Source: an uncultured Bacteroidales bacterium
GTDB lineage: Bacteria; Bacteroidota; Bacteroidia; Bacteroidales; UBA932
Reading direction: 5' to 3'
DNA: 64,000 nt
Assembly (NCBI GenBank): GCA_944322585.1
Contig: CALUPB010000004.1
Coordinates: 1-64,000, forward strand
The first letter of the stretch is position 1; each line of letters opens with the position of its first letter. Below the pieces are notes generated by a model. It saw only the letters and a program-made list of their open reading frames with translations. It was not told the origin of the DNA and did no database searches. A program made the position numbers and the translations under genes. Of the stretch, positions 1 through 13,301 are shown in pieces.

Positions 1-312
1 GTAACAGATAAATTGATATATTTGCAGAACTAAGAGGTCTGAAGGCTTACTCCGGACACACTGTTTGAAACACTACCCTTTAGATGTTTCAGTACTAATA
101 GTAATGTCAATGGCTATGAGGTTGATAATTTCCCTATTCCACAGTTGTCCCCAAATGCTCAAGCGACGATTTCAGAATTGGTTAAGAAGGTTATTGATGC
201 TAAACGAACAAACTGCTCAACTGATACTTCTGCAATAGAAAAGCAGATTGATGAGCTTGTTTATCAAGCTTATCAATTATCAAAGGATGATATAAAAATC
301 ATTGAACAATAA
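1..312 (+). pseudogene. C-terminal remnant of a type IIG / Eco57I-like restriction-methylase
   Basis: The frame that stops at 310-312 encodes a tail with FPIPQLS, then EKQIDELVYQAYQL, KDDIKIIEQ. This IDELVY-x-x-Y-x-L ending is typical of the C-terminal specificity part of type IIG and related N6-adenine methylases. In the same frame there are stops at 31-33 and 40-42, and no ATG start codon follows, so the visible piece cannot be a normal gene start. It is either a decayed gene or the end of a gene frameshifted near the window edge. Its base composition is AT-rich like the island that follows. The family call rests on the short tail only; the fragment status is clearer than the exact family. 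Confidence 0.6.
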
Positions 313-322
313 TTAAATAGCA

Positions 323-355
323 AAAGAGCGATCTGATTTCTCAAGGTCGCTCTTT
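323..355. terminator. bidirectional intrinsic terminator
   Basis: A perfect 9-bp inverted repeat (323-331 AAAGAGCGA against 347-355 TCGCTCTTT) encloses a 15-nt loop. A-rich and T-rich ends give short U tracts in either direction. It lies between the plus-strand methylase remnant and the convergent minus-strand repeat-protein gene whose stop is at 359, so it can serve both. Confidence 0.7.
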
Positions 356-358
356 AGT

Positions 359-784
359 TTAATATGTGTAATCTATGAATCCTATACTAATTAGATAGTC
401 TGCAATATCATTCATATTCCTTTTCTGTAGTTCTTTAATTAAAATATGTGGTGGAGGCCAATTACTCATATATGGGTTACTACATGGCCCTGTGTAAAGT
501 CCACCACCGGGACCTGTGTAAAGTCCGCCACCGGGACCTGTGTAGAGTCCGCCACCGGGACCTGTGTAAAGTCCGCCACCGGGACCCGTGTAAAGTCCAC
601 CACCGGGACCCGTGTAAAGTCCACCACCGGGACCTGTGTAAAGTCCACCACCGGGACCTGTGTAAAGTCCGCCACCGGGCCCTGTGTAAAGTCCACCACC
701 GGGACCTGTGTAAAGTCCACCACCGGGACCTGTGTAGAGTCCACCACCAGGCCCTATGTATCTATCTCTTGGCCATTTGTTCAT
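359..784 (-). CDS. GGGLYTGP octapeptide-repeat protein
   Basis: The 141-residue product has a 12-residue head (MNKWPRDRYIGP), eleven perfect copies of GGGLYTGP (about residues 13-100) and a 41-residue non-repeat tail containing CSNPYMSNWPPP and a helical-looking KELQKRNMNDIADYLI. No signal peptide or membrane segment is visible. The repeat is Gly/Pro/Tyr rich, so an extended or turn-rich fibre-like structure is likely; the tail looks folded and may be the targeting or docking part. It is the last gene of the five-gene operon, starting 6 nt after the stop of the Ntn-hydrolase gene. The function is unknown. It could be the substrate, the effector or a structural partner of the Ntn-hydrolase; this is inference from adjacency only. 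Confidence 0.8.
   Translation of the reverse strand: MNKWPRDRYIGPGGGLYTGPGGGLYTGPGGGLYTGPGGGLYTGPGGGLYTGPGGGLYTGPGGGLYTGPGGGLYTGPGGGLYTGPGGGLYTGPGGGLYTGPCSNPYMSNWPPPHILIKELQKRNMNDIADYLISIGFIDYTY
491..754. repeat. 11 x 24-bp tandem repeat inside the octapeptide-repeat gene
   Basis: Eleven directly repeated 24-bp units fill exactly 264 bp. Unit-to-unit differences are few and nearly all fall at positions silent in the minus-strand reading (for example CCACC/CCGCC, TGTGTA/CGTGTA), so selection holds the GGGLYTGP peptide. As 24 is a multiple of 3, all other frames also stay open, which creates long false reading frames on both strands. Unit number could change by replication slippage without a frameshift. 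Confidence 0.95.
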
Positions 785-790
785 ATTCTA

Positions 791-1489
791 TCACTTATGA
801 AGTTCTTTTCTATCTATCCAAAAAGCATTATCTGGCTTTATTATTAAAATATCAACAGGGCCTCCAACCGTCTTCGTCCGTTGTTGAAATTTCATTGTAT
901 CTATAGTGGTTTGAATTGCATATTTTGCAAAATCAATAGCATCTTGTATTGTAAAAAGATTAAATGGGATAGGATAATCTGTTAAAGCATCACCATTCTG
1001 CGTATACATTGTAGTCAATACTCTACTAAGTACATCTATTTCACCATCCCATATTGCCCCTTGAATATCTGTATTAATAGATTCTATTTTATCTATAGCG
1101 GTAGAAATTCTATATAATTTTTGTTCATATGTTTTTCCTGTGTTTATATAACCTCCAATGATAAAATCTGTATCTATTGTTTGGCATAATGCTTTGAAAT
1201 ATGGAATTATTTCATCTTTAATTTTATCAACACATTCATCTTTATGTTCATTGATAAAACTTTCTATATAACCTGCGATAGGTTTGTTGTTGATACTTGC
1301 TTGACCACATGTCGAAATACCAACTCCCTTTGGAGTTAGGAATGTCTTATATGAAGAATCACTATAATGAATTCCGTTATTTTGGACTATTGTTCCATCT
1401 TGCTTATGAATAGTAGTACTGAATGTTGTTCTACTATCACTGGCCATAACAATACCTTCGCCTAAATGTAATGCAATAATTAGTGACAT
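791..1489 (-). CDS. proteasome-like Ntn-hydrolase
   Basis: The 232-residue protein begins MSLIIALHLGEGIVMASDSR, which aligns with the start of proteasome beta subunits, HslV and Anbu. After Met removal Ser2 would take the place of the catalytic Thr1; Asp18-Ser19-Arg20 matches the conserved D17-S18-R19, and Lys48 followed by GISTCGQA matches the catalytic Lys33 and the glycine-rich strand. About 14 extra residues lie between Asp18 and Lys48. The C-terminus is variable and no transmembrane segment is seen. Known family members are self-assembling N-terminal-nucleophile peptidases; activity here is inferred from these residues. It is the fourth gene of the operon, 30 nt after the RES gene. No dedicated ATPase partner (HslU-like) is present nearby, which is unusual for a housekeeping protease. 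Confidence 0.75.
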   Translation of the reverse strand: MSLIIALHLGEGIVMASDSRTTFSTTIHKQDGTIVQNNGIHYSDSSYKTFLTPKGVGISTCGQASINNKPIAGYIESFINEHKDECVDKIKDEIIPYFKALCQTIDTDFIIGGYINTGKTYEQKLYRISTAIDKIESINTDIQGAIWDGEIDVLSRVLTTMYTQNGDALTDYPIPFNLFTIQDAIDFAKYAIQTTIDTMKFQQRTKTVGGPVDILIIKPDNAFWIDRKELHK

Positions 1490-1519
1490 ACTATCTTAAC
1501 GATTTATAGCTGTTAAAAA

Positions 1520-2527
1520 TTATTTTTTGTCGATATCAATTTTTGTGATTTCATGCGAATCTACTCTTATACATTTTGCAGAACTATCATCAAACAATAC
1601 ATAATTACGACCTCCTTTATGCAAAGAACTCTCAAAGCTTATTCCATCAGCACCAACAATCCGTTTACAATATTCACAAATTAACTGAGTCGGGACATAT
1701 TCTAATTCGGAATCATATCTACGAAGAGGTTTGGACAGATCTTCACTTATGGCATCTATTATTTTTTTCTTGATGACGATTTCCTTCAGCGATGTAGTAT
1801 CATCATTATATGCCAAGAATAAATTTACATCGTAAATAAAATCAACAAGTTCTAATTCACGTTCTATTCTAAATGTACCAACACTTAATTTATCTAAATA
1901 GACTGCACGTACTTCGAAATAAGTCGTTTTTGCTGAATCACTTAAATACAAATAAGGTATTCCTATTGGGTTTGCACGACCTGCTGTTGCCAGTTCTTTA
2001 GGAGGACACCCCATTTTATCACATTTAATTTTCTTTTGACCAACGGGTGTTATACGAGAACGATATAATTTTTGACCAACATGTAAACTCTTACCAGCTG
2101 TCAGATAATTATACTGAGCAAATTCATCCATATTGGTGAAGAAGCGGGATTTTTCTTTTACGCTAGTTTTAAGTCTATCCCAAACTGCAACACGAATGCA
2201 AATATCATCTGTGTAATCTACGAAATCAGCTATTGAGTAACCAAGATTATTTGCCTGAATAACATCAGCTAATAAAACCATTGCAACGTCTTTATCTTTA
2301 AAGAAATGCCACTCGTCCTGAATAATATCAACAATTGTTTTACTACTATTCACTGTTGGAGAATACAATTCTAGCAAGGTAGTAAAGAAGCCATAAAACT
2401 CAGAAAAGTCCATTACTTTACTTTGTTTGCCACACACATCACATATGTCATCAATAACAGCATTGGCATTTATTTCGGAACGTAATTCCTCATCAAAAAA
2501 ACAATCTTTACATATTTTCATACGCAA
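1520..2527 (-). CDS. RES-domain protein with N-terminal zinc ribbon (HEPN/RES type)
   Basis: Residues 6-32 hold two CxxC pairs (C6/C9, C29/C32), a probable zinc ribbon, followed by a helical region to about residue 145. The C-terminal half is a RES domain: LYRSRI (R156, R158), GRANPIGIPYLYLSD with R184, FEVR with E205, then QLICEYCK, DGISFESS (S297-S300) and NYVLFD. Arg, Glu and Ser are the hallmark residues of the RES family, whose characterised toxins (MbcT, ParT, Xre-RES toxins) degrade or transfer from NAD+. No Xre-type antitoxin is adjacent; the partners here are an sce7725-like protein and an Ntn-hydrolase, so the context is not an ordinary RES-Xre toxin-antitoxin pair. It starts 5 nt after the preceding stop, so it is probably translationally linked. 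An alternative start is Met3. Confidence 0.8.
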   Translation of the reverse strand: MRMKICKDCFFDEELRSEINANAVIDDICDVCGKQSKVMDFSEFYGFFTTLLELYSPTVNSSKTIVDIIQDEWHFFKDKDVAMVLLADVIQANNLGYSIADFVDYTDDICIRVAVWDRLKTSVKEKSRFFTNMDEFAQYNYLTAGKSLHVGQKLYRSRITPVGQKKIKCDKMGCPPKELATAGRANPIGIPYLYLSDSAKTTYFEVRAVYLDKLSVGTFRIERELELVDFIYDVNLFLAYNDDTTSLKEIVIKKKIIDAISEDLSKPLRRYDSELEYVPTQLICEYCKRIVGADGISFESSLHKGGRNYVLFDDSSAKCIRVDSHEITKIDIDKK

Positions 2528-2532
2528 TATTA

Positions 2533-3477
2533 TTATAATGAAAGAATTAGCTCTAAATGATTTTTAACTGATAACTTCTTCAAATATCCTAGACCAGGAT
2601 AACCTTCTGATGCATTAGCTTTTTCAATTATTTCTTTTACAGCTTCTGTTTTGTTCTTATCTTCGTAGAATGGAGCAACTTTTCTTGCTGCCTCTCTAAA
2701 TTTTCCACGGATATCATTATTGGTCTCATTGCTATCTGAAACGAAATGATGAACATAAAGCTGCTCCTCATTCTTTCTATACGAAAGATGGATCGCCAAA
2801 GCATATGGTAACATCCCACCTTCTATGTACTCAGATGGTAAAGTTGTATAATCTGAATATCCATCTAAATTACCTTCCTCGGCATAGAAAAACGGTTCTT
2901 CTGAAAACAGTTCATCTACCTCAAGAGCGTAGTCAGCATTACGAACCCTTGATTTGAAACAATCATCTAATCTAATAATCTGTTTCCCCGTTTCTTTTAA
3001 TCTACTTCTTAATCTTCTAGATATGGTAGAGCCAAATGAATTGACAACATAACCGACAGATTCATTGTTGATTATTTTCCAAGCACTTTCATCATCCATA
3101 TCCATGCAAGTGCGGAATATAATCATGGCGTTACCAAGTGTATATTCATCAATTATTGATGATATCTCATGAGCATTAAGCTTGGAATAAAGAAAGGCAG
3201 GAATCCAACTATCTTTATTTTCCATTAACTTCTCATTTTGGAACCATGTATCAAATTTTACTGTAGGGTGTTTGAAGTCGCCATCTTTAGGATTTAAGAT
3301 AATGGCAAATTTTAAACCACAGGTCAACATTTCATCTATTGCAAGATTCAGCGCATTAGGTTGCTGTTTCACTGGCTCTAAAATCGGTACAATAGAGTTT
3401 TGTCCTTTATGTTCTACCGAAAATTCTCTTAAAGCCTTAAGCTCATATTGTTTTGCACGAAGATATGGATAATACAT
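2533..3477 (-). CDS. sce7725 / beta-family protein
   Basis: The 314-residue protein begins MYYPYLRAKQYELKALREF, the characteristic opening of the sce7725 family (related to the phage beta-protein family), and continues with IVPILEPVK and an alternating strand/helix pattern (FAIILNPKDGD, GYVVNSFGS, QIIRLDDCF) that suggests a TIM-barrel-like fold. There is no signal peptide. The biochemical function of the family is not established. It sits 3 nt downstream of the sce7726-like gene, the pairing for which these two families are named, and 5 nt upstream of the RES gene. Its role is inferred to be within a defence-type module, since both partners look like nucleic-acid or NAD+-acting enzymes. Confidence 0.75.
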   Translation of the reverse strand: MYYPYLRAKQYELKALREFSVEHKGQNSIVPILEPVKQQPNALNLAIDEMLTCGLKFAIILNPKDGDFKHPTVKFDTWFQNEKLMENKDSWIPAFLYSKLNAHEISSIIDEYTLGNAMIIFRTCMDMDDESAWKIINNESVGYVVNSFGSTISRRLRSRLKETGKQIIRLDDCFKSRVRNADYALEVDELFSEEPFFYAEEGNLDGYSDYTTLPSEYIEGGMLPYALAIHLSYRKNEEQLYVHHFVSDSNETNNDIRGKFREAARKVAPFYEDKNKTEAVKEIIEKANASEGYPGLGYLKKLSVKNHLELILSL

Positions 3478-3480
3478 AAT

Positions 3481-4350
3481 CTATGCTTGATTTATGTTAA
3501 TATTCAACTGTTCCAATAATTTATTAGCTTTGTCTTCAGGCAAATTTAGACTCAACATCATTTGTCTAATTGACATAGGATATTTTCGTAATAATGCTGT
3601 ATTATTTTTGCGTTTCTTAATTTCACACAAAAAAAATTCTCTCAGTTTATTGGGATTTGCTTTTGAAATGACTTGATAACAATATTTGTACATATCATAT
3701 CCAGCTACTCCTTCTAAAGATTCACCCAACGACAATACAATATTTTTATATTCTTCAGTTCTAAGGCATGACATTAGTGCTTCGTATTCAAAACGTTCAT
3801 TCTGTTCCGCATCTCTAAATTCTTTTAGAATAATGCGCCCATTATTTCGGTTCATTACTATGATGCCTGTTGTTGGCTCAACAATGTCACGATATTCATC
3901 TACTTTATTTTCTGGAACAATTATATAACATTTATCAAAAAAGCGTTTATAATCGTCCATTTGTTTATCTAACCTACGAGGAGTATCATATTCTGTCTTG
4001 ATTTCAAAGGCTTTGCTCTCACCATTGAACATCACCATATCGGCAATAGAATTCCCAACTCTAAATTCATTGAAGTATACAGAATTTTTTGTTCCGTATT
4101 TTTTTAGAAGTAGTTTTATCAACTCATTCTTATATACATACTCACACCTGTAATGTTTAGAAATTACAGAATACGATTTCTTCAACAAATCTGAATAGGT
4201 CGCACATCTTAATATATCATATTTGGAAGCCAACCAATTAAAATGCGAATAGTCATTGAAATTTAAGACATCTATAAATGCACTACGAGAGAAGGCTGAA
4301 GAAAAATCCCTCAGTCTAATCAGCTCTTCATTTGCATTTATCATTGCCAT
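3481..4350 (-). CDS. sce7726-family PD-(D/E)XK nuclease-like protein
   Basis: With the start at 4350 the protein has 289 residues. The centre contains GNSIADMVMFNGESKAFEIK, giving D104, E116 and K118 in the PD-(D/E)XK nuclease pattern, followed by LDKQMDDYKRFFD with the Q-x3-Y motif seen in many restriction-like nucleases. The remainder is helical and resembles the sce7726 family. An upstream ATG at 4392 is in frame, but the TATCTTTG promoter box at 4380-4387 lies inside that extension, so 4350 (MAMINANEE) is preferred. It is the first gene of the five-gene operon. Nuclease activity is inferred from the motif; DNA or RNA specificity cannot be told. Confidence 0.7.
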   Translation of the reverse strand: MAMINANEELIRLRDFSSAFSRSAFIDVLNFNDYSHFNWLASKYDILRCATYSDLLKKSYSVISKHYRCEYVYKNELIKLLLKKYGTKNSVYFNEFRVGNSIADMVMFNGESKAFEIKTEYDTPRRLDKQMDDYKRFFDKCYIIVPENKVDEYRDIVEPTTGIIVMNRNNGRIILKEFRDAEQNERFEYEALMSCLRTEEYKNIVLSLGESLEGVAGYDMYKYCYQVISKANPNKLREFFLCEIKKRKNNTALLRKYPMSIRQMMLSLNLPEDKANKLLEQLNININQA

Positions 4351-4379
4351 ATACAATACACCCAAATTAAATCTTCTTG

Positions 4380-4387
4380 CAAAGATA
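4380..4387 (-). promoter_or_regulatory. -7 box of the five-gene operon promoter
   Basis: On the minus strand the sequence TATCTTTG fits the Bacteroidetes -7 consensus TAnnTTTG. It lies about 30 nt upstream of the chosen start codon at 4350. A matching -33 TTG at 19-20 bp is not clear; a TTG exists at a longer distance. Confidence 0.5.
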
Positions 4388-5019
4388 CACATATTTTCGC
4401 CATATATAAAATTTCAAGTAATAAAACAACCGCTTGCCTTATTATTTTTTACAAAATATTTTCTTCACAGTTTTTGTCTTATATTATCCTGCGTAAGAAT
4501 CAAATTATAAGCAATTTTCTTTTTGCTGTTACAAGTTTTCCAATGCCTTTTGCCTTAATCCTATTTGCTCACAAGTACTCAATCGAAACGCAAGTGCAAT
4601 TACCTCTTCTACTCTTCAGCCATCTAACGATACGATTTGGTAATGCCTACAAGTAGGAACGGAAAGTATTACCGCACTTGTAAATCATCATTCACATTAT
4701 CTTTGAAATTGTAATGGTTTTTAAGTGTGGAGAATAAAAAGAATTCAATTAAATAATAAATTATCAAATAATTTCCTTGTTAGGCTTGGTAATGCATTTT
4801 TATAATGGTGATAAGAATGTGGTTTCTTTGTATGATTTGTTACATTTTCCATCGGCAGTAACTCTATTATTCTCCTATCTTCCAACAAAGAATCATAGGC
4901 ATTTGAAAATATTGTCTTCTGAAAAAATAACAAGAAACGGGAACTTTACGGTATCAAATTAAAGATAGAACCTGATACTTGCATTGAGTATTATATTGAT
5001 ATATAGATATTTTCGGTTC
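4388..5019. other. AT-rich intergenic stretch without a recognisable gene
   Basis: About 630 bp between the nuclease-like gene and the first copy of the ~200-nt element. Short open frames occur on both strands, but none has codon use, a start context or a protein resembling a known family. A short inverted pair GTATCA/TGATAC lies near 4953-4978 and could end transcription coming from the ncRNA-like element. Nothing else is supported. Confidence 0.6.
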
Positions 5020-5263: not shown

Positions 5264-5848
5264 TTACCATTTATCTGGTATTATATTTTCTGGGAATTTA
5301 ACGGTAAACATGTATGTAAACGTATTGTTCAGTTGTGCTGCACCTTTCTTTATAAAAAATTTTCTGAATCTATCTTTCTTGAATGCTATTTCTTCAAGAG
5401 TATGCGTTTCCGTACCTGATGCTCCTATTATTATACCACCTGTGGGAATACCTACAGAATAAACATTCGACCATTTAACACAATCAACAACCACTCTGTA
5501 TCTATTTTCTGCCAAATCAATACGGAACGACACTTCACATTGGTCATCCAATGGATGTACAATGGCAGATGGTTTATATCCACAATCATAAATCGGCAAT
5601 ACTTCAGAACGGGTAAAGCCAACGATAACACTATCTGTTGTCTGGTTCATCACAAAGTACCTGCCATTGGAAAAATATTTTAAAACATCGTCTTTCGACA
5701 CATTCTCATATACTCGCGACCATAAAATCTTTCCATTACTTACGGTAAAATTCTGAAAAGTAGTGTCTGACACATGGGGCTGCTGCGCAGCCAACACATA
5801 CGTTACCGTCAAAAAACTGAAAATCAACATTATTTTTCCCATCTCCAA
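5264..5848 (-). CDS. small exported protein of unknown function
   Basis: The 194-residue protein begins with a short charged end and a hydrophobic stretch (IMLIFSFLTVTYVLAA) followed by QQ, a likely signal peptide cleaved near residue 21. The mature part has FQNFTVSNGKILWSRVYEN, then RYRVVVDCVKW, a pattern loosely like exported Bacteroidales proteins of the DUF4468 type (weak resemblance by eye). A glycine-rich GIPTGGIIIGASG lies in the C-terminal half. It stands alone, enclosed by the two copies of the ~210-bp repeat in an AT-rich setting, so it may have been acquired or duplicated with them. The function is unknown. Met3 is an alternative start. Confidence 0.65.
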   Translation of the reverse strand: MEMGKIMLIFSFLTVTYVLAAQQPHVSDTTFQNFTVSNGKILWSRVYENVSKDDVLKYFSNGRYFVMNQTTDSVIVGFTRSEVLPIYDCGYKPSAIVHPLDDQCEVSFRIDLAENRYRVVVDCVKWSNVYSVGIPTGGIIIGASGTETHTLEEIAFKKDRFRKFFIKKGAAQLNNTFTYMFTVKFPENIIPDKW

Positions 5849-6013
5849 AACTTATTACAAAACGCTTACAAATCACTATCAAGATTTTTCGTAGTAATGC
5901 AACCATAATATTGCGACATACACGTATCTATAAAATGATATGACGCATATAGTTTTTTCATATTGCTGAACGGTTATGCTAACTGTCCCGAGATAGCATG
6001 TTACAAATAAAGA

Positions 6014-6205
6014 AAGCGTGGGACTTCCAACTTATTCAAGGTAACAGGCTCTGACAAAACCTAACGAAAATAAATAAGCAAAAGCCCACGCCATAGCGTG
6101 AGTATTAGCCTATTCTCTTTCCGTAAAAAATTTGTCAGATTTCGTTACCTGAGAATATGCTGAACACTTTCGATGTTCCGATATTTCATACTGTCCGAAG
6201 ACAGC
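6014..6205 (-). ncRNA. candidate structured RNA, copy B
   Basis: On the minus strand the predicted transcript starts near 6205, just after a TACATTTG box. The 5' end forms CTGTC-TTCG-GACAG, a five-pair stem closed by a C(UUCG)G tetraloop, which fixes the likely RNA strand. Next come GAACA...TGTTC, a long-range GGTAAC/GTTACC helix with an adjacent GACAAA/TTTGTC helix, and CACGC-TATG-GCGTG. Two of these helices show compensatory changes relative to copy A. The exported-protein gene begins about 165 nt downstream, so a long leader rather than an independent RNA is also possible. Confidence 0.55.
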
Positions 6206-6229
6206 TAACTACAAATGTAATGATATTTT
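6014..6229. repeat. ~210-bp direct repeat, copy B
   Basis: Second copy of the element at 5020-5232. Both copies flank the exported-protein gene, so recombination between them could delete or duplicate the roughly 1-kb unit. Confidence 0.9.
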
Positions 6230-6243
6230 CAACATAAATCAAA
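6212..6243 (-). promoter_or_regulatory. Bacteroidetes-type promoter of RNA copy B
   Basis: On the minus strand a TTTG (6240-6243) is followed after 20 bp by TACATTTG (6212-6219), a full match to the -33/-7 consensus. It points into the structured element and onwards to the exported-protein gene. Confidence 0.7.
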
Positions 6244-6286
6244 ATACGGGACAGGAAGATATAAGAAGGGAATATTCAGGATATCC

Positions 6287-6481
6287 CTAAAATGAAAAAG
6301 GCAGGTCATCGGAAGTGATGCCTGCCTTTTTCAAGCGCTTGCGGTCATAGACTTTCTTAGAGCGGTGGACCGTCATCCTCGTGACAGGTCTCCCGTGGGA
6401 GGCGATTTCCTCATTCCGGCTCGCCCTGCGGTTTGCCCTGACATAATCGTCGAGGGTAACCCTCATTTTACTGTTTTTCAT
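6287..6481 (-). CDS. small basic protein downstream of fur
   Basis: The 64-residue protein is strongly basic (MKNSKMRVTLDDYVRANRRA, then HRSKKVYDRKRLKKAGI). It has no membrane segment or signal peptide. The start overlaps the fur stop by 4 nt (ATGA), so the two are translationally coupled. Similar short basic proteins ending in a KVYDRKR-type motif are believed to occur in other Bacteroidales, but no function is known to me. An intrinsic terminator is embedded in its last codons. The basic composition would allow nucleic-acid or ribosome contact, which is speculation. Confidence 0.7.
   Translation of the reverse strand: MKNSKMRVTLDDYVRANRRASRNEEIASHGRPVTRMTVHRSKKVYDRKRLKKAGITSDDLPFSF
6295..6331 (-). 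terminator. terminator overlapping the 3' end of the small basic gene
   Basis: AAAAAGGCAGG (6295-6305) and CCTGCCTTTTT (6321-6331) are perfect 11-bp arms; inside them CATC and GATG extend the stem on the minus strand with one unpaired base. The U tract is read as the final Phe codons, so the stop codon at 6287 lies just after the hairpin. The A-rich 5' arm lets it act in both directions, insulating the island from the core region. Confidence 0.8.
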
Positions 6482-6897
6482 AACATCCGCTGTTTTTTAG
6501 AACATCTGTCACATATTCCCTTTATGGTATAGTTCACCGAACGCACCTCGAAACCGTCTGGAAGATCAACCGAAGGGACATTTATCATCTTGAGGCAGTA
6601 TGTCTCATGACATGATTCACAATAGAAATGGGTATGCAGCTCGGCATGCTCGCCTTCCCCGATGACTTCATATTTCTCCGAACCGCTCCCGTCCTCAAAA
6701 GAATGGACAAGCTGCTGCTGCCTGAAAAGATTGAGAGTCCGGAAGATACTGGACTTGTCAACCGTCTCGAGCTCCGCCTCCAGATCGGAAAGGGACAGGG
6801 AATGGCTCGCCTCCAGCATGGCCTCCAGAACCAGGATACGGTTGGCTGTGGGCTTTATGTCATGGCTTTCAAGCAGTTCTATACAATAATTATTCAT
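6478..6897 (-). CDS. Fur-family transcriptional regulator
   Basis: The 139-residue protein has the Fur layout: an N-terminal winged helix (IKPTANRILVLEAMLEA, then LEAELETVDKSSIFRTLNLF) and a C-terminal metal and dimer domain with HTHFYCESC, a second pair CDRC near residue 133, and HAELHTHF. The two CxxC pairs fit the structural zinc site of Fur/Zur/PerR proteins. Whether it senses iron, zinc or peroxide cannot be told. The strong promoter at 6940-6971 gives a leader of about 35 nt, and the small basic gene is cotranscribed. Confidence 0.9.
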   Translation of the reverse strand: MNNYCIELLESHDIKPTANRILVLEAMLEASHSLSLSDLEAELETVDKSSIFRTLNLFRQQQLVHSFEDGSGSEKYEVIGEGEHAELHTHFYCESCHETYCLKMINVPSVDLPDGFEVRSVNYTIKGICDRCSKKQRML

Positions 6898-6939
6898 AAT
6901 TGCATATCATTCAAGAGCTGGGGACGCCCATACTGTCCG

Positions 6940-6971
6940 CAAAAATACTATATCTTGTCCAATCTCCCAAA
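6940..6971 (-). promoter_or_regulatory. promoter of fur
   Basis: On the minus strand TTTG (6968-6971), a 20-bp spacer and TATTTTTG (6940-6947) match the Bacteroidetes consensus. It lies between the barrel-protein stop at 6984 and the fur start at 6897. Confidence 0.65.
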
Positions 6972-8847: not shown

Positions 8848-9276
8848 CTATGCTGTCCTGCGGACTTTCAGGATATTGGAATCCTGCCCGACTATTTCGG
8901 CCTCGCTTCCGGCCGGTATCTCCGCGCCGTCGTCGGAGACGGCCTGCCAGTCATCCCCGTCCACCTTGATCCGGCCCATAGTGTTCCTGCCCACAGCCTC
9001 AATCACCTTTGCCTTCCGTCCTATCAGGGATTCCATGTTCGACGGCTTGGCCCCTTTCGAAAACCAGCGCAACATTACAGGCCTCACCGTTACCAGCGAG
9101 ACAAGGGCAAGCAAAGCGAAAGCAAGTATCTGCCCCCAGAACGGTGCCCCGAAGGCAGAAGCAGCAGCACCGCCAAGCGCCCCCACAGCAATGCAGATGA
9201 CGGCAAAGCCTGACGTAAATATCTCTACAATAAAGAGGAGAAGGGCAGCTATGACCCAGATATGCCATACTTCCAT
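8848..9276 (-). CDS. NfeD-like membrane protein, copy 2
   Basis: The 142-residue protein has two or three N-terminal membrane segments (IWVIAALLLFIVEIFTSGFA, then a Gly/Ala-rich helix) and a C-terminal OB-fold-like domain with ESLIGRKAKVIEAV, MGRIKVDGDDWQAVS and VGQDSNILKVRR. It is of the short NfeD type, lacking the ClpP-like protease part. It is closely similar to the next upstream gene and 34 nt upstream of the SPFH gene. Confidence 0.88.
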   Translation of the reverse strand: MEVWHIWVIAALLLFIVEIFTSGFAVICIAVGALGGAAASAFGAPFWGQILAFALLALVSLVTVRPVMLRWFSKGAKPSNMESLIGRKAKVIEAVGRNTMGRIKVDGDDWQAVSDDGAEIPAGSEAEIVGQDSNILKVRRTA

Positions 9277-9288
9277 ATCGGACGGATT

Positions 9289-9714
9289 TTATATTTTCCT
9301 GGCTTTCAGAATGTCGGTGTTCTGTTTGAGTATCTCTACCCTGTCACCCGGACCCACCTCATCTCCATCGACGACAAGTACCTGCCATTCATAATCACCG
9401 AGCCTGATACGCCCGACCTGTCCGGCAGGGATCTTTTCGGTCACCTCGACCGTACGTCCTACCAAAGGCCCCGTATGGGTACGCTTTATACCCTTGTGCA
9501 TATAGAGCCTTACCACAGGCCTTACGGTGAAAAATGCGAACAGGGCCACAAATATTCCCGAAAGGACCTGAGCCCAGACGGGAAGATCGCAGACAGCGGC
9601 AACCGCCCCGCCCACAGCTCCGAAGGCAAGACATGTAACGATATAACCGCTCGTAAAAACTTCAATGATGAAAAGCAGCAGTGCCGCTATCACCCAGATA
9701 TCCCATACGTCCAT
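9289..9714 (-). CDS. NfeD-like membrane protein, copy 1
   Basis: The 141-residue protein (start at 9714, MDVWDIWVIAALLLF) mirrors its neighbour: membrane helices WVIAALLLFIIEVFTSGY, then VRPVVRLYMHKG and the OB-fold-like GPLVGRTVEVTEKIPAGQVG, IRLGDYEWQVLVVDGDEV. The reading frame is open up to 10029, but a promoter at 9782-9813 and the alignment with copy 2 place the start at 9714. The pair looks like a tandem duplication that has diverged, presumably giving a heteromeric partner for the SPFH protein. Confidence 0.88.
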   Translation of the reverse strand: MDVWDIWVIAALLLFIIEVFTSGYIVTCLAFGAVGGAVAAVCDLPVWAQVLSGIFVALFAFFTVRPVVRLYMHKGIKRTHTGPLVGRTVEVTEKIPAGQVGRIRLGDYEWQVLVVDGDEVGPGDRVEILKQNTDILKARKI

Positions 9715-9947: not shown

Positions 9948-11312
9948 TCAACCGACACCGGCATGCCGGCGCACCTTTTTCAGGACAACGGCAAACATCA
10001 CTATCTCTACCGCAAAAGTGAGTATCCATGAAATAGGATAGGACACATATATACTGTCAAGGGTATGGAACCGGTCTATCCGGAATACGGTCATGATCCA
10101 CCCGACCCTGAACACGACCACCCCCATAATGGCCGTAACCATCGGAAGGGTCGAATATCCGAGTCCCCGGAGCGACCCGGTCACCGTATCCATGATGCCG
10201 CACAGGAAATACGGCAGACAGACATACGTCATACGGATAAGTCCGCAGTCTATCGCGGAGGCTTCATCTGTAATGTACACTCCCAGCAGCGGACGTCCGA
10301 AACCGTATATCAGTATGCTGAGCACAATGCCCACGACAGACACATACAGGAGACACAGCCTGGTGATGCTGCTGACACGGTCGAACCTCCGTGCTCCTGC
10401 ATTCTGGCCGGTAAAATTCATGGACGTCTGCTGGAATGCATTCATGCATACGTATTCGAAGCCCTCGATATTCGCGGCTGCCGCGTTTCCCGTCATCGCT
10501 ATGTGGCCGAATGAATTGACCGAAGACTGGATCACGACATTGGACACCGAGAAAAGGGAGCCCTGGATACCTGCCGGAAGACCGACAAGGACAATCTTCC
10601 GGAGAGCATTCCTGTGGAACCTCATTCTTTTCGGGAAAAACCTGCAGGCATCATCCCTGCGCATCAGTTCCCTGATGACAAGTCCGGCCGCAAGTATCTG
10701 CGATATCGCAGTGGCGAGTCCCACACCTTCAACCCCCATCCCGCAGAGAGGGACAAAGACGAGGTTGAGAATCACATTGAGTACTCCGGCGGCAGAAAGA
10801 TATATCAGAGGACTGGAAGTATCACCCACAGCCCTCAGGATGGATGCCCCGAAATTGAAAACCATCATGAAGGTCATTCCGGAAAAATACATCCTCATAT
10901 ATGCGACAGACTGGTCGATGACATTATCCGGAGTAGCCATCATCACAAGAAGCGGTTTCGCGAAAATGATTCCCGCAACAGTAAGTCCCAGACCGCTCAG
11001 AATAGCGGTAGGAATGGCCGTATGCACTATGCTTGAGACCTGACCGTCATCCCGTGCTCCGACTCCCTGGGCCACACCTACTCCGGCTCCGATTGAAAAA
11101 CCTATGAAAAGATTGACAATAAGGTTGATCAGGGCACCTGTAGCCCCCACAGCCGCCAGCGCGATACTTCCGCAGAAACGACCGGCAATGATCAGATCCA
11201 CCGCCATGAACAGCAGCTGCAGCAGACCGGTCATGATAATAGGGACAGTATACACTATGATCATGCGCCATAGCGGTCCCTGTGTCATATCCATTACTCC
11301 TGCTCTTCTCAT
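9948..11312 (-). CDS. MATE-family multidrug/Na+ antiporter
   Basis: With the start at 11312 (MRRAGVMDMTQGPLW) the protein has 454 residues and about twelve membrane helices in two homologous halves. Typical MATE features are the N-terminal MTQGPLWRMIIVYTVPI, DLIIAGRFCG, SIGAGVGVAQGVGA and the mid-protein GLPAGIQGSLFSVSNVVIQ. The family exports cationic drugs or metabolites using Na+ or H+. An in-frame extension to 11426 would add a polar segment not seen in MATE proteins, so it is not used. It is divergent from the deoxynucleoside kinase. The substrate cannot be predicted. Confidence 0.9.
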   Translation of the reverse strand: MRRAGVMDMTQGPLWRMIIVYTVPIIMTGLLQLLFMAVDLIIAGRFCGSIALAAVGATGALINLIVNLFIGFSIGAGVGVAQGVGARDDGQVSSIVHTAIPTAILSGLGLTVAGIIFAKPLLVMMATPDNVIDQSVAYMRMYFSGMTFMMVFNFGASILRAVGDTSSPLIYLSAAGVLNVILNLVFVPLCGMGVEGVGLATAISQILAAGLVIRELMRRDDACRFFPKRMRFHRNALRKIVLVGLPAGIQGSLFSVSNVVIQSSVNSFGHIAMTGNAAAANIEGFEYVCMNAFQQTSMNFTGQNAGARRFDRVSSITRLCLLYVSVVGIVLSILIYGFGRPLLGVYITDEASAIDCGLIRMTYVCLPYFLCGIMDTVTGSLRGLGYSTLPMVTAIMGVVVFRVGWIMTVFRIDRFHTLDSIYVSYPISWILTFAVEIVMFAVVLKKVRRHAGVG

Positions 11313-11550
11313 ATGATGTCGGTTTCCTTTATTCGCATCCGGATTTGCGACATGTTCCTGCGCGTTTTCCGGCACTCCTTGTACCGGCATGCCATCCGGC
11401 CGCGGATGCGGCGCGAAGTTAATCAAAATCCGGATACATTATCCTGCCGGATTCGCAGAAAGTGTCCGGAAACTGTTCTGAATTTTTCCGAAAATGCCTT
11501 TACGGACCTTTCCGGTACAATTCATACCATCAATTTTCAAAACAGTTTCT

Positions 11551-11558
11551 TAAATTTG
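11551..11558 (+). promoter_or_regulatory. -7 box upstream of the deoxynucleoside kinase
   Basis: TAAATTTG fits the -7 consensus and lies about 45 nt before the ATG at 11601. No convincing -33 TTG occurs at 19-20 bp. Confidence 0.45.
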
Positions 11559-11600
11559 TACGGTTTTACAAAATAGTTGATAAACTTGAGCAAGAGACTT

Positions 11601-12212
11601 ATGCACATAGGAATAGCTGGAAACATCGGTTGCGGGAAGACGACACTGACAAAGATGCTGGCCGGGCACTACGGCTGGACACCCAAATACGAGTCAGTCA
11701 CATACAATCCGTATCTTGAAGATTACTACAGGGATATCGAAAGATGGTCATTCAACCTCGAAGTATATTTCCTGACCCGGAGATTCAAGGATGTACTGGA
11801 AATAGCGAAGTCTGAAGACGTGATAGTCCAGGACAGGACGATATTCGAGGGAGTATATATATTCGTAGCCAACAACAGGGCGATGGGAAACCTTTCCGAA
11901 AGGGACTTCAACACATACATGGACCTGTTCCGTCTCATGATGTCTCTTGTGAAGGCTCCCGATCTGCTCATCTATCTCAAATCATCCATCCCGCATCTCG
12001 TAAGCCGGATTGCGAAGCGAGGACGCGACTATGAAAAGGGCATAAGCATAGAATACCTTACCGGACTGAACGAAAGATACGACAAATGGATATCGGAATA
12101 CCCGGGCAAGGTGCTGACCATAGATGCGGACGGGCTCGACTTCCAGAACCGTCCGGAAGATTTCTCATCCATCACGGACCGCATTGACGCACAGCTCTAC
12201 GGGCTTTTCTGA
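11601..12212 (+). CDS. deoxynucleoside kinase (dCK/dGK family)
   Basis: The 203-residue protein begins MHIGIAGNIGCGKTTL, a P-loop at the extreme N-terminus as usual for the family. It has the VQDRTIFEGVYIF segment (the D/E-R-S-like motif contacting the sugar) and the LID segment RIAKRGRDYEKG. It phosphorylates deoxynucleosides for dNTP salvage in the cytoplasm; base preference is not decidable by eye. A TTG at 11577 would add eight residues, but the ATG gives the normal family start. It is a single gene, convergent with the polyphosphate genes. Confidence 0.9.
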   Translation: MHIGIAGNIGCGKTTLTKMLAGHYGWTPKYESVTYNPYLEDYYRDIERWSFNLEVYFLTRRFKDVLEIAKSEDVIVQDRTIFEGVYIFVANNRAMGNLSERDFNTYMDLFRLMMSLVKAPDLLIYLKSSIPHLVSRIAKRGRDYEKGISIEYLTGLNERYDKWISEYPGKVLTIDADGLDFQNRPEDFSSITDRIDAQLYGLF

Positions 12213-12287
12213 ATTCCTGCGGATGCGGTACGGGAGTATTCCCCGCAGTGCATACCGGCATCCGGCTCCTGCAGGATCCATGCGGGC

Positions 12288-13214
12288 TCACCGGACGGGG
12301 TCGGGATGATTGCGGGTATAAAGCCAGTCTATGATTCCGTCGGCAAGGCCTATGACCGGAACGTATATCCATGTCGCACCGGTGATGCCGGCGATTGTCA
12401 GGAAAATCCGCCCTGCGGGGATAATCACATCGGCACGGTCGGGCTTCAGGCCGTATTCCTCTATTCTCTGCTCCACGGTAAGGGCATTCAGTCTGTCGAA
12501 TATTTCCTGCAGTGCCTCTACCCCCATCCTGTTATGACGGTTGTCACGACGCGGCACGAGCCTGTAGTATTTATTGATGTTTCCGCCCGAACCTATTATC
12601 TGTATACCCGGATAAGACCCGGCAAGATCTGCCATGTCCTTGCGGAGACGCTGCCATTCGGATTCTGCCACGGAGCCGTTGAGAGATCTGACCGTACCGA
12701 TGTTATATGAACGGGAACAGACAAGGCCGCCGTCTGCAAGAAGATTTATCTCCGTACTTCCTCCTCCCACATCCACGAACATGAAGTTGCCCTTTTTCCC
12801 GCGCATCGTCTCGATATGGTTGCTGTAAATCATTTCCGCCTCTTCCTGTCCGCCGATTATCTCGATACGGATACCTGTCTCCTTGAAAACGGTCCTTATG
12901 ACGGACTGTCCGTTTTCCGCATCCCTCATTGCCGATGTCGCACATGCCCTGTAGTCATCCACATTATATATCTTCATCAGCTGTCTGTAGCATTTCATGA
13001 GCCGGATCAGATCCTTTTCCTTCTTACGGGATATCTTACCCTCGGCAAAGACATCGAACCCCAGCCTAAGGGGTACACGCAGAAGCAGGGCCTTGTTGAA
13101 AAGAGGTCTTGTGTCGCTCTCGAGCTGTTTGATCAGCAGCCTGACCGCATTGGAGCCGATATCGATAGCCGCATAGGTTTCGGCATCCTTCCTTATTCCG
13201 TCTGTTTCAGCCAT
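12288..13214 (-). CDS. ppx: exopolyphosphatase / Ppx-GppA family
   Basis: The 308-residue protein starts MAETDGIRKDAETYAAIDIG; AIDIGSNAVRLL is the first phosphate-binding loop of the ASKHA fold, and FVDVGGGSTEINLL the second. LRDAENG, QEEAEMIYSN and the size equal the short Ppx/GppA form lacking the C-terminal HD part. Members hydrolyse terminal phosphate of polyphosphate or pppGpp. It lies 87 nt downstream of polyphosphate kinase on the same strand, which favours the polyphosphate role. The start at 13214 is chosen over an in-frame upstream ATG because the family begins just before the first loop. Confidence 0.88.
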   Translation of the reverse strand: MAETDGIRKDAETYAAIDIGSNAVRLLIKQLESDTRPLFNKALLLRVPLRLGFDVFAEGKISRKKEKDLIRLMKCYRQLMKIYNVDDYRACATSAMRDAENGQSVIRTVFKETGIRIEIIGGQEEAEMIYSNHIETMRGKKGNFMFVDVGGGSTEINLLADGGLVCSRSYNIGTVRSLNGSVAESEWQRLRKDMADLAGSYPGIQIIGSGGNINKYYRLVPRRDNRHNRMGVEALQEIFDRLNALTVEQRIEEYGLKPDRADVIIPAGRIFLTIAGITGATWIYVPVIGLADGIIDWLYTRNHPDPVR

Positions 13215-13301
13215 TGCATCATAATCTTTAAAGTCCTTTCTGTCAGGAAAACCGGCCGCAAATGCGACAAGGTGGCCCCTTGCCGGCATAATGCCGCCCC
13301 G

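What the first reader, a model, noticed from the sequence alone, without database searches (positions are those of the whole stretch)
359..4350. Five-gene operon joining sce7726, sce7725, RES, a proteasome-like Ntn-hydrolase and a GGGLYTGP repeat protein
Five minus-strand genes with gaps of 3, 5, 30 and 6 nt follow one promoter-like box, in an AT-rich segment next to a restriction-methylase remnant. The parts (restriction-like nuclease, NAD+-acting RES fold, orphan N-terminal nucleophile hydrolase, repetitive small protein) are the sort of modules found in defence or toxin systems, but I know of no described system with this combination. The Ntn-hydrolase may process the repeat protein or release an inactive RES effector; this is inference.
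Basis: partly seen in the sequence, partly recalled or inferred. Interest (0 to 1): 0.9.

Follow-up and report, generated by a model that had tools for sequence, protein, structure and literature searches.

The report
Phage-defence-like operon with proteasome-like enzyme
A bacterium carries a three-gene toxin-and-nuclease module of a kind found on prophages, plasmids and defence islands, to which its lineage has added a small proteasome-like enzyme and a repeat protein; some relatives of that enzyme sit inside restriction operons, which offers a clue to the role of an orphan proteasome relative.

Summary
The five genes are real, codirectional and intact, but not one widespread five-gene system. 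Three of them, sce7726 (PD-(D/E)xK motif), sce7725 and a Zn-ribbon/RES protein, form a recurrent mobile triad: 7 of 8 phylum genomes above cut-off (the window's own included), 6 of 10 distinct viral loci, 4 of 6 opened plasmids, 2 of 3 phage-collection records, in several cases beside R-M genes. sce7726 is clearly homologous to cII, and sce7725 weakly to beta, of the P4 anti-phage system gop-beta-cII; gop has no counterpart, RES standing in its place. The proteasome-like Ntn protein and the GGGLYTGP protein join the triad only in the window and sister genome L104: 0 of 35 other loci. Each occurs alone elsewhere, also on phage contigs. Yet the Ntn family has a context: in 7 of 79 loci (six Bacillota) it lies in type I R-M operons, in 4 overlapping the preceding hsdS, and the window copy falls in that clade. 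The paper describing new proteasome homologs reported no suggestive context. Best reading: an abortive-infection module with an NAD+-acting RES toxin plus an accessory protease and repeat protein. NAD+ use, defence and the Ntn fold are untested (structure server busy).

The parts
1..312 (+). 3' end of an Eco57I-type DNA methyltransferase gene, cut by the contig edge; convergent with the operon
   Evidence: Window begins at contig base 1; window 79-4414 aligns with L104 7079-11410, where the full 1025-aa gene (11180-14257) matches Eco57I E=1e-31
325..353 (.). inverted repeat AGAGCGA / TCGCTCT with a 15-nt loop between the two convergent transcription units, possible two-way terminator
   Evidence: Read by eye; the terminator scan, limited to loops of 3-8, found none
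359..784 (-). GGGLYTGP repeat protein, 141 aa, 11 units of 8 residues, termini MNKWPRDRY... and ...SNWPPPHILIKELQKRNMNDIADYLI
   Evidence: the 11 window units differ only at silent positions; 17 silent: 1 changed against L104; relatives with like termini on viral contigs and in E. coli prophages
791..1489 (-). proteasome-like Ntn hydrolase (predicted), 232 aa, Ser2 exposed if Met is removed, Asp18, Arg20, Lys48
   Evidence: Ser after the initiator in 68 of 70 relatives with a called start; D18 invariant, S2, R20 and K48 at 90% or more of 65; profile against PDB: proteasome beta 8oix E=6e-4; Pfam Proteasome matches 8 of 65 members at E<=0.01, best 1.3e-4; fold not modelled
1520..2521 (-). Zn ribbon (C6xxC9, C29xxC32, numbered from the TTG at 2527) + HEPN/RES-NTD1-like region + RES domain
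   Evidence: RES PF08808 E=5.5e-13; four Cys and Arg, Glu and Ser residues of the RES region invariant in 8 of 8; HEPN_RES_NTD1 below cut-off
2533..3477 (-). sce7725 family protein, distant relative of P4 beta at the N terminus
   Evidence: NF033831 E=4.3e-79; Beta_protein PF14350 E=4.2e-6, 26.9 bits against a cut-off of 27; profile against beta profile prob 63.6, E=6.7e-5 over 50 columns
3481..4350 (-). sce7726 family protein, PD-(D/E)xK nuclease motif (motif recalled), homologue of P4 cII
   Evidence: NF033832 E=6.1e-51; PADLOC cll E=5.5e-24; hhalign against P4 cII prob 98.7, E=4.6e-16 with P4 left out of the profile; D and ExK invariant in 10 of 10 including cII
4380..4387 (-). TATCTTTG, candidate -7 promoter element (TAnnTTTG), 37 nt before the ATG at 4350
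   Evidence: a TAnnTTTG also stands 32 nt before the ATG in L104; consensus recalled, chance rate not tested

Best explanation
A mobile three-gene toxin-antitoxin-like anti-phage module (sce7726 nuclease, sce7725 sensor or antitoxin, Zn-ribbon/NTD1/RES toxin), a variant of the P4 gop-beta-cII kind in which the toxin is an NAD+-acting RES enzyme, has in this lineage (window and L104) been extended by two accessory genes, a proteasome-like Ntn peptidase and a phage-type GGGLYTGP repeat protein. Proposed working: sce7725 keeps the RES protein inactive; infection, perhaps nuclease action of sce7726 on phage DNA, disturbs that complex; RES consumes NAD+ and stops the cell; the Ntn peptidase adjusts the response by cutting a protein of the complex. 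Shown: gene order, recurrence, families, homology to cII (strong) and beta (weak), Ntn motif, presence on mobile elements, R-M neighbours in several loci. Inferred: nuclease activity, NAD+ use, antitoxin role of sce7725, anti-phage effect, any role of the Ntn and repeat proteins.
For: Triad recurrence in same order and strand. Defence genes beside it in chosen loci: L016 type I and PtuA-like, L019 and L188 type I, L020 type IIG, L202 PDC-S21; a Salmonella ICE with a caspase-like gene nearby; L104 Eco57I and PLD/helicase. cII homology; beta. gop-beta-cII protects against lambda and P1 and gop is toxic without beta (PMC9122126, passages); PD-lambda-2C, related to the P4 antitoxin, is required for defence (PMC9519451, passages). 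On plasmids a beta-cII pair has varying upstream partners (5 of 8 records opened), in two an M78 peptidase, which suggests a constant pair with exchangeable partners, peptidases included. Ntn within type I R-M operons and the window copy in the same starred clade.
Against: No experiment on a sce7726-sce7725-RES operon was found. beta homology is N-terminal and weak. In PD-lambda-2 the beta-like component is not needed to neutralise the toxin (PMC9519451), so an antitoxin role for sce7725 does not follow. Orientation differs from P4, where cII is convergent with beta. sce7725 and RES lie on either side of a recombination breakpoint between window and L104 (78% against 94.5% DNA identity), which a finely matched toxin-antitoxin pair would not be expected to tolerate easily. 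Most Ntn relatives have no type I R-M neighbour: among 109 adjacent proteins Pfam finds 6 Methylase_S, 5 N6_Mtase and 1 HaeIII, the other families among the 25 of 119 shown being mostly metabolic, with dapF in 7 Chloroflexota loci.
Confidence: 0.58

Rival explanations
1. Five genes as one obligate machine: the Ntn hydrolase processes the repeat protein or releases an inactive RES effector.
For: Tight spacing; the same five in a sister genome; RES, Ntn and repeat genes share one exchange block of 94-97% identity while sce7726 and sce7725 are at 78%.
Against: No Ntn or repeat in 35 of 35 other loci tested (26 if ten viral copies count once; some have an incomplete triad); no repeat at 78 of 78 other Ntn loci; no Ntn at 78 of 78 pattern-hit viral loci.
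Confidence: 0.12
2. Defence-island pile-up: the Ntn and repeat genes are passengers, or the Ntn gene works with the neighbouring Eco57I/PLD-helicase R-M system rather than with the triad.
For: R-M genes directly downstream; Ntn inside type I R-M operons in 7 of 79 loci; the combination seen only in window and L104; both are solitary genes on some phage contigs.
Against: Codirectional with 30- and 6-nt gaps and no internal terminator found, convergent to the R-M genes; low dN/dS of the repeat gene.
Confidence: 0.25
3. The triad is an addiction module that stabilises mobile elements and is not anti-phage.
For: On plasmids, an ICE and viral contigs; RES toxins are known in toxin-antitoxin pairs (search listing and abstracts' first lines).
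Against: A cII-family protein and R-M neighbours; the P4 relative is anti-phage.
Confidence: 0.15

Closest known systems
gop-beta-cII anti-phage system of satellite P4 (Rousset et al. 2022, PMC9122126, passages seen)
   Same: cII-family protein (strong homology) and beta-family protein (weak, N-terminal), three genes, mobile, toxin expected
   Different: RES in place of gop; all genes codirectional in the order cII-like, beta-like, RES; in P4 gop-beta with cII convergent
PD-lambda-2 (Vassallo et al. 2022, PMC9519451, passages seen)
   Same: third component related to the P4 antitoxin, toxin-antitoxin-like, includes a peptidase domain
   Different: HigB-like and Xre-peptidase partners; no RES or Ntn in the description read
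Zn ribbon + HEPN/RES-NTD1 + RES proteins (Anantharaman et al. 2013, PMC3710099, passages seen)
   Same: domain architecture of the RES protein
   Different: a link to sce7726 and sce7725 is not in the passages seen
New prokaryotic proteasome homologs, 22 subfamilies (Fuchs, Alva and Lupas 2021, PMC8665760, abstract and sections 3.1, 3.3, 4 read)
   Same: Thr1/Ser1, Asp17, Lys33-type motif, prokaryotes and some phages, no propeptide; probably one of the group II subfamilies (inference)
   Different: subfamily not assignable here; the authors found no genomic context suggestive of a specific function
sce7725 / sce7726 families (NCBIfam NF033831, NF033832)
   Same: members above cut-off
   Different: the model names give no function

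Membership tests
gop-beta-cII system | cII-family protein | tested here: met
   PADLOC cll 5.5e-24; hhalign prob 98.7
gop-beta-cII system | beta-family protein | tested here: inconclusive
   PF14350 26.9 bits against cut-off 27, residues 2-50 only; PADLOC beta E=0.026; single P4 beta prob 0.8; beta profile prob 63.6
gop-beta-cII system | gop toxin gene | tested here: not met
   no PADLOC gop match in the window genes; RES profile against gop prob 0.1
gop-beta-cII system | gene orientation of P4 (cII convergent with beta) | tested here: not met
gop-beta-cII system | anti-phage activity, toxicity relieved by beta | not testable with these tools
   bench only
sce7726-sce7725-RES triad (recurrent operon described here) | three genes adjacent, in this order, same strand | tested here: met
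   window, L104
RES domain, NAD+ phosphorylase/NADase | RES domain with conserved Arg, Glu, Ser | tested here: met
   PF08808 5.5e-13; R156, R158, E205, S300 and S301 invariant in 8 of 8; which are catalytic is recalled, not tested
RES domain, NAD+ phosphorylase/NADase | NAD+ consumption | not testable with these tools
   bench only
HEPN/RES-NTD1 | NTD1 domain at curated score | tested here: inconclusive
   window 13.3 bits, L016 17.4, L020 23, L021 24.7, cut-off 27.4
Proteasome-like Ntn hydrolase | N-terminal Thr/Ser nucleophile, Asp17, Lys33 | tested here: met
   Ser after Met 68 of 70, D18 invariant, K48 at 90% or more of 65; equivalence of K48 to Lys33 is by eye
Proteasome-like Ntn hydrolase | Pfam Proteasome at curated score | tested here: not met
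   window 13.4 bits against 22.4; 8 of 65 relatives at E<=0.01; own genome gave no PF00227 match at E<=1
Proteasome-like Ntn hydrolase | Ntn fold | not tested
   Structure prediction busy at all 21 attempts
Fuchs et al. subfamilies (PMI, FC and others) | match to the published subfamily alignments | not testable with these tools
   alignments not held
HslV | HslV-like sequence | tested here: inconclusive
   hhalign against only 2 HslV rows, prob 0.2

The most novel reading that the evidence does not exclude
A branch of the orphan bacterial proteasome homologs serves as a protease subunit of prokaryotic immune operons: coupled to hsdS in type I R-M operons, mainly of Clostridia, and to a sce7726-sce7725-RES toxin module in the window's lineage, where it controls or self-limits the effector by proteolysis.
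Probability: 0.28. Interest if true: 0.82.

Novelty: new variant of a known kind. Interest (0 to 1): 0.6.

Why it matters
It ties two NCBI families named without a function (sce7725, sce7726) to the P4 gop-beta-cII type of anti-phage system, with a RES protein in the toxin's place. It also gives a genomic context, R-M operons and a toxin module, for a proteasome-like family of a kind whose describers reported no context suggestive of function (PMC8665760, section 4); two paper searches for such a link turned up no other report, but only this library was searched. Both points are testable in laboratory strains. The repeat protein belongs to an accessory gene family of phages that RefSeq annotates in another frame in at least two E. 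coli records.

Tried and rejected
Rejected: (1) a five-gene system of general occurrence (35 of 35 other loci lack Ntn and repeat within the fetched stretch). (2) RES as a homologue of gop. (3) 1-312 as a decayed methylase: it is a contig-edge cut; whether the window's gene is intact beyond the edge cannot be seen. (4) The repeat gene read in another frame, other frames being open through the 24-nt period: rejected by 17 silent to 1 changed site and by termini shared with relatives. (5) A conserved Ntn-repeat pair.

Led nowhere: Ntn in plasmids (none) and, by single sequence, in viral contigs (none); repeat protein by tblastn in phages and plasmids (none; the low-complexity filter may hide it); PDB profiles of RES, sce7726 and sce7725 (nothing credible); HslV comparison (only 2 of 12 loci passed my start pattern). 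Paper searches for sce7725, GGGLYTGP, sce7726, Ntn with defence terms, and YTGPGGG gave 3, 0, 4, 0 and 0 papers; the 3 and 4 were not opened, so I cannot say that the triad is not in print. Searches gave 1, 69, 194, 2 and 2 papers; of all these I opened four (passages of PMC9122126, PMC9519451 and PMC3710099; outline, passages and three sections of PMC8665760). Structure prediction of the Ntn family, and then of sce7725, was planned and never accepted, so no fold search was made.

Limits of counts: the search for related loci kept the best 80 of 131 Ntn relatives; 79 gave a phmmer hit (L183 did not). Starts were called for 70 of 79; of the nine others, L109, L118, L134 and L159 begin MS, L176 VS, and L128, L129, L142 and L154 are cut, split or unclear. 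L156 is the Ala and L166 the Thr exception. Alignment A6 holds 65 rows: the window, L023, L025 and 62 of the 70. Neighbour scans left out L104 and three Methanoregula near-duplicates (L115, L121, L127) and proteins under 100 or over 1300 aa; only the first 25 of 119 (Pfam), 179 and 70 (PADLOC) families are shown by the tool, so further defence families may be hidden on either side. The naming of hsdR, hsdS and hsdM at single loci rests on BLAST clusters with aggregate Pfam/PADLOC counts; only L105 was shown singly. G289 (below cut-off, two stops) was not opened. Of 12 plasmid records with sce7725, 6 were opened; of 8 with beta, 5. Ten viral loci (L191-L199, L204) have the same scores and gene coordinates or lengths and were taken as copies of one. 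In the tree L109 was not among the 65 rows, so 6 of the 7 R-M loci were used.
Full report
OBSERVATION. The window starts at base 1 of a contig of a 2.87-Mb genome. Five minus-strand ORFs tile 359-4350 with gaps of 6, 30, 5 and 3 nt. NCBIfam names the first two transcribed sce7726 (6.1e-51) and sce7725 (4.3e-79); Pfam finds RES in 1520-2527 (5.5e-13). A second genome, L104 (titled Candidatus Gallipaludibacter merdavium), has the same five genes in order; whether the window's organism is of that genus was not tested. Between the two all five are open, with dN/dS below 0.4 by a simple count. G+C is 31-41% in the 1-kb bins up to 6 kb against 48-54% from 7 to 20 kb, as for acquired DNA.

A BREAKPOINT. 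Against L104, sce7726 and sce7725 are 78% identical in DNA with near-saturated silent sites (pS 0.68), whereas RES, Ntn and repeat genes are 94.5, 97.3 and 95.7% identical (pS 0.14, 0.06, 0.16). Either the downstream three genes were exchanged recently as a block or the upstream two were replaced. The repeat gene has 17 silent and 1 changed site; within the window all 11 units encode GPGGGLYT with only silent differences.

THE TRIAD. In 296 genomes of the phylum, sce7725 was found in 9, 8 above cut-off. Of these 8, the window and G071, G284, G213, G266, G171 and G259 have sce7726-sce7725-RES in that order; G012 has the pair only. In viral contigs 19 loci were found: all 19 have sce7726, 15 have the triad (in L188 the RES is in two ORFs); ten look like copies of one, so 6 of 10 distinct. 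Three of the distinct loci without RES are cut or hold a partial sce7725 (L203, L205, L206). Of 12 plasmid records six were opened: 4 have the triad (Shinella, Moraxella, Rhizobium, Pseudorhizobium), one (Arthrobacter) has a short sce7725 and then an IS3 element, one (Enterococcus) has by phmmer neither sce7726 nor RES. Of 3 records in the phage collection, 2 have it, one on a Salmonella ICE with a caspase-like gene nearby. Neighbours include type I R-M (L016, L019, L188), type IIG (L020), a PtuA-like ATPase (L016) and PDC-S21 (L202) (ten proteins chosen by me, so not a rate). None of the 35 loci outside the window and L104 has, within the fetched stretch, the Ntn (phmmer) or an ORF with two or more repeats; 26 if the ten copies count once.

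RELATION TO P4. PADLOC's cll model matches window sce7726 (5.5e-24) and P4 cII; with P4 left out of the profile, hhalign gives prob 98.7 and E 4.6e-16. D and E-x-K are invariant in ten sequences, cII included, the PD-(D/E)xK motif by recall. sce7725 shares with beta only about the N-terminal 50 residues. gop shows no relation to RES. Rousset et al. report that gop-beta-cII protects against lambda and P1 and that gop is toxic without beta (PMC9122126, passages). Of 8 plasmid records with beta five were opened: beta stands convergent to an annotated sce7726 gene in L231, L232 and L233, and by eye L230 and L234 are alike; the upstream partner varies, in L230 and L234 an M78 peptidase. Vassallo et al. 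describe PD-lambda-2 with an Xre-peptidase and a third component related to a P4 antitoxin, which is required for defence though not to neutralise the toxin (PMC9519451, passages). I infer a constant cII-like and beta-like pair with exchangeable toxins and, at times, a peptidase.

THE RES PROTEIN has four invariant Cys in two CxxC pairs at its N terminus, then a stretch like HEPN/RES-NTD1 (below cut-off), then RES. Anantharaman et al. list NTD1 fused to RES, some with a Zn ribbon in front (PMC3710099, passages). NTD1 is there an N-terminal domain found with HEPN or RES, not a HEPN domain. NAD+ as substrate is from knowledge of the RES family and search listings, not tested.

THE NTN PROTEIN. 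It is rare in the phylum sample (3 of 296 genomes, the window's own included) and was not found in the plasmid collection, but is widespread: 131 confirmed loci in the genome collection, 80 kept, titled Bacillota, Bacteroidota, Chloroflexota, archaea and others, plus viral contigs L023-L025. Ser follows Met in 68 of 70 called starts. The profile's best PDB match is a proteasome beta subunit (6e-4); Pfam Proteasome matches 8 of 65 members. No fold was obtained. In 7 of 79 loci, six titled as Bacillota and one (L109) Kiritimatiellae, the gene lies within type I R-M operons: hsdS directly before it in L109, L125, L130, L133 and L155; hsdM before and hsdS behind it in L105; in L122 another gene stands between hsdS and Ntn. 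It overlaps the preceding hsdS by 1 nt in L125, L130 and L133 and by 32 nt in L109. Among 109 adjacent proteins Pfam finds 6 Methylase_S, 5 N6_Mtase and one HaeIII in the 25 of 119 families shown, PADLOC 6 type I specificity and 10 type IIG-model matches in the 25 of 179 shown. In a control of 78 proteins five places away no type I R-M model is in the 25 of 70 families shown; type II or orphan methyltransferase, PDC-S02 and RmrA models match single members. Most other contexts named are metabolic, and in 7 Chloroflexota loci the neighbour is dapF. The tree puts window and L104 in a starred clade of 27 rows, 22 of them Bacillota, with all 6 R-M rows used and the phage copy L023; the nearest row, from Prevotella (L124), joins without starred support. 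This suggests acquisition from Bacillota. Set only against window and phage rows, R-M embedding needs two changes. Fuchs et al. [quoted passage not shown] This family is probably one of their group II clusters; I could not test which.

THE REPEAT PROTEIN. The pattern occurs in 1 of 296 phylum genomes, the window's own. Of 78 viral loci with one match or more, 12 encode two or more repeats: eight with a W-x-R start and a PP-containing tail like the window's, four with a secretion-type start (the split is by eye). By eye six of the eight (L049, L061, L083, L087, L088, L102) lie near integrase, portal, terminase or tail genes; L041 and L072 are unclear. In E. coli 18 of 5426 genomes match; the three opened have it at the end of a P2-like prophage after the integrase. 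RefSeq annotates another frame there in two of the three and nothing in the third.

MECHANISM. Most likely the triad is an abortive-infection module: RES toxin held by sce7725, sce7726 contributing to sensing or attack. The Ntn protein would act as a protease on one member; the repeat protein has no assigned role. The breakpoint between sce7725 and RES, and the dispensability of the beta-like part of PD-lambda-2 for neutralising its toxin, speak against a finely co-evolved toxin-antitoxin interface and leave room for RES, Ntn and repeat as the exchanged block. Confidence 0.58 for the whole reading, lower for any Ntn role.

KNOWN OR NEW. The parts are known families; the triad is a variant of a known kind. 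No paper on the triad was recognised in the held library under sce7725 or sce7726 (3 and 4 papers, not opened), gop-beta-cII or RES with HEPN or anti-phage (20 of 69 listed). Not in anything I read, and so possibly new, are the link of the sce7726 family to cII, the RES swap, and the R-M context of the Ntn family.

Noticed in passing
L224 and L225 9035-9349, L226 near 9001-9335 (E. coli P2-like prophages): The GGGLYTGP gene is annotated in another frame (WP_024205920.1) in L224 and L225 and not at all in L226; in the first two the frame with the repeats begins MWPRNKYTGPGGG and ends with a PP-containing tail as in the window.
   Followed up: partly
L105, L109, L122, L125, L130, L133, L155: Proteasome-like gene inside type I R-M operons, overlapping the preceding hsdS in four of the seven.
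   Followed up: partly
L230 2953-3453, L234 2929-3474: M78 (IrrE-like) peptidase directly upstream of a P4-beta relative with, by eye, a cII-like gene convergent behind it.
   Followed up: partly
L211 and L186 around 5300-6957 (Enterococcus plasmid and a contig labelled Listeria phage): sce7725 without sce7726 or RES; the gene before it reads like a different PD-(D/E)xK nuclease (by eye).
   Followed up: no
L104 3174-7009 and 11180-17559: Around the sister operon: an AlbA_2/Schlafen-type protein, an AAA ATPase, an Eco57I methyltransferase and a PLD/helicase, like a defence island.
   Followed up: partly
whole genome G000: No PF00227 (HslV/proteasome) match in the genome, nor in the six other same-class genomes of that sample, while all 19 genomes of other classes have one.
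   Followed up: no
L167, L168, L172, L174, L177-L179 (Chloroflexota): A distinct branch of the Ntn family sits in a conserved block with dapF and, by eye, a MiaA-like gene, so not all members are defence-linked.
   Followed up: partly
L025 / L006: Divergent Ntn copy (24-28% identity, very long branch) in a prophage, with a 72-aa gene overlapping its 3' end; matches phrog_5990 at the C terminus.
   Followed up: no
L126 10920-11435, L181 10836-11612, L131 9025-9942: Genes next to Ntn that by eye read like AbiH-type (L126) and TIR-like (L181, L131) proteins; not checked with any library singly.
   Followed up: no
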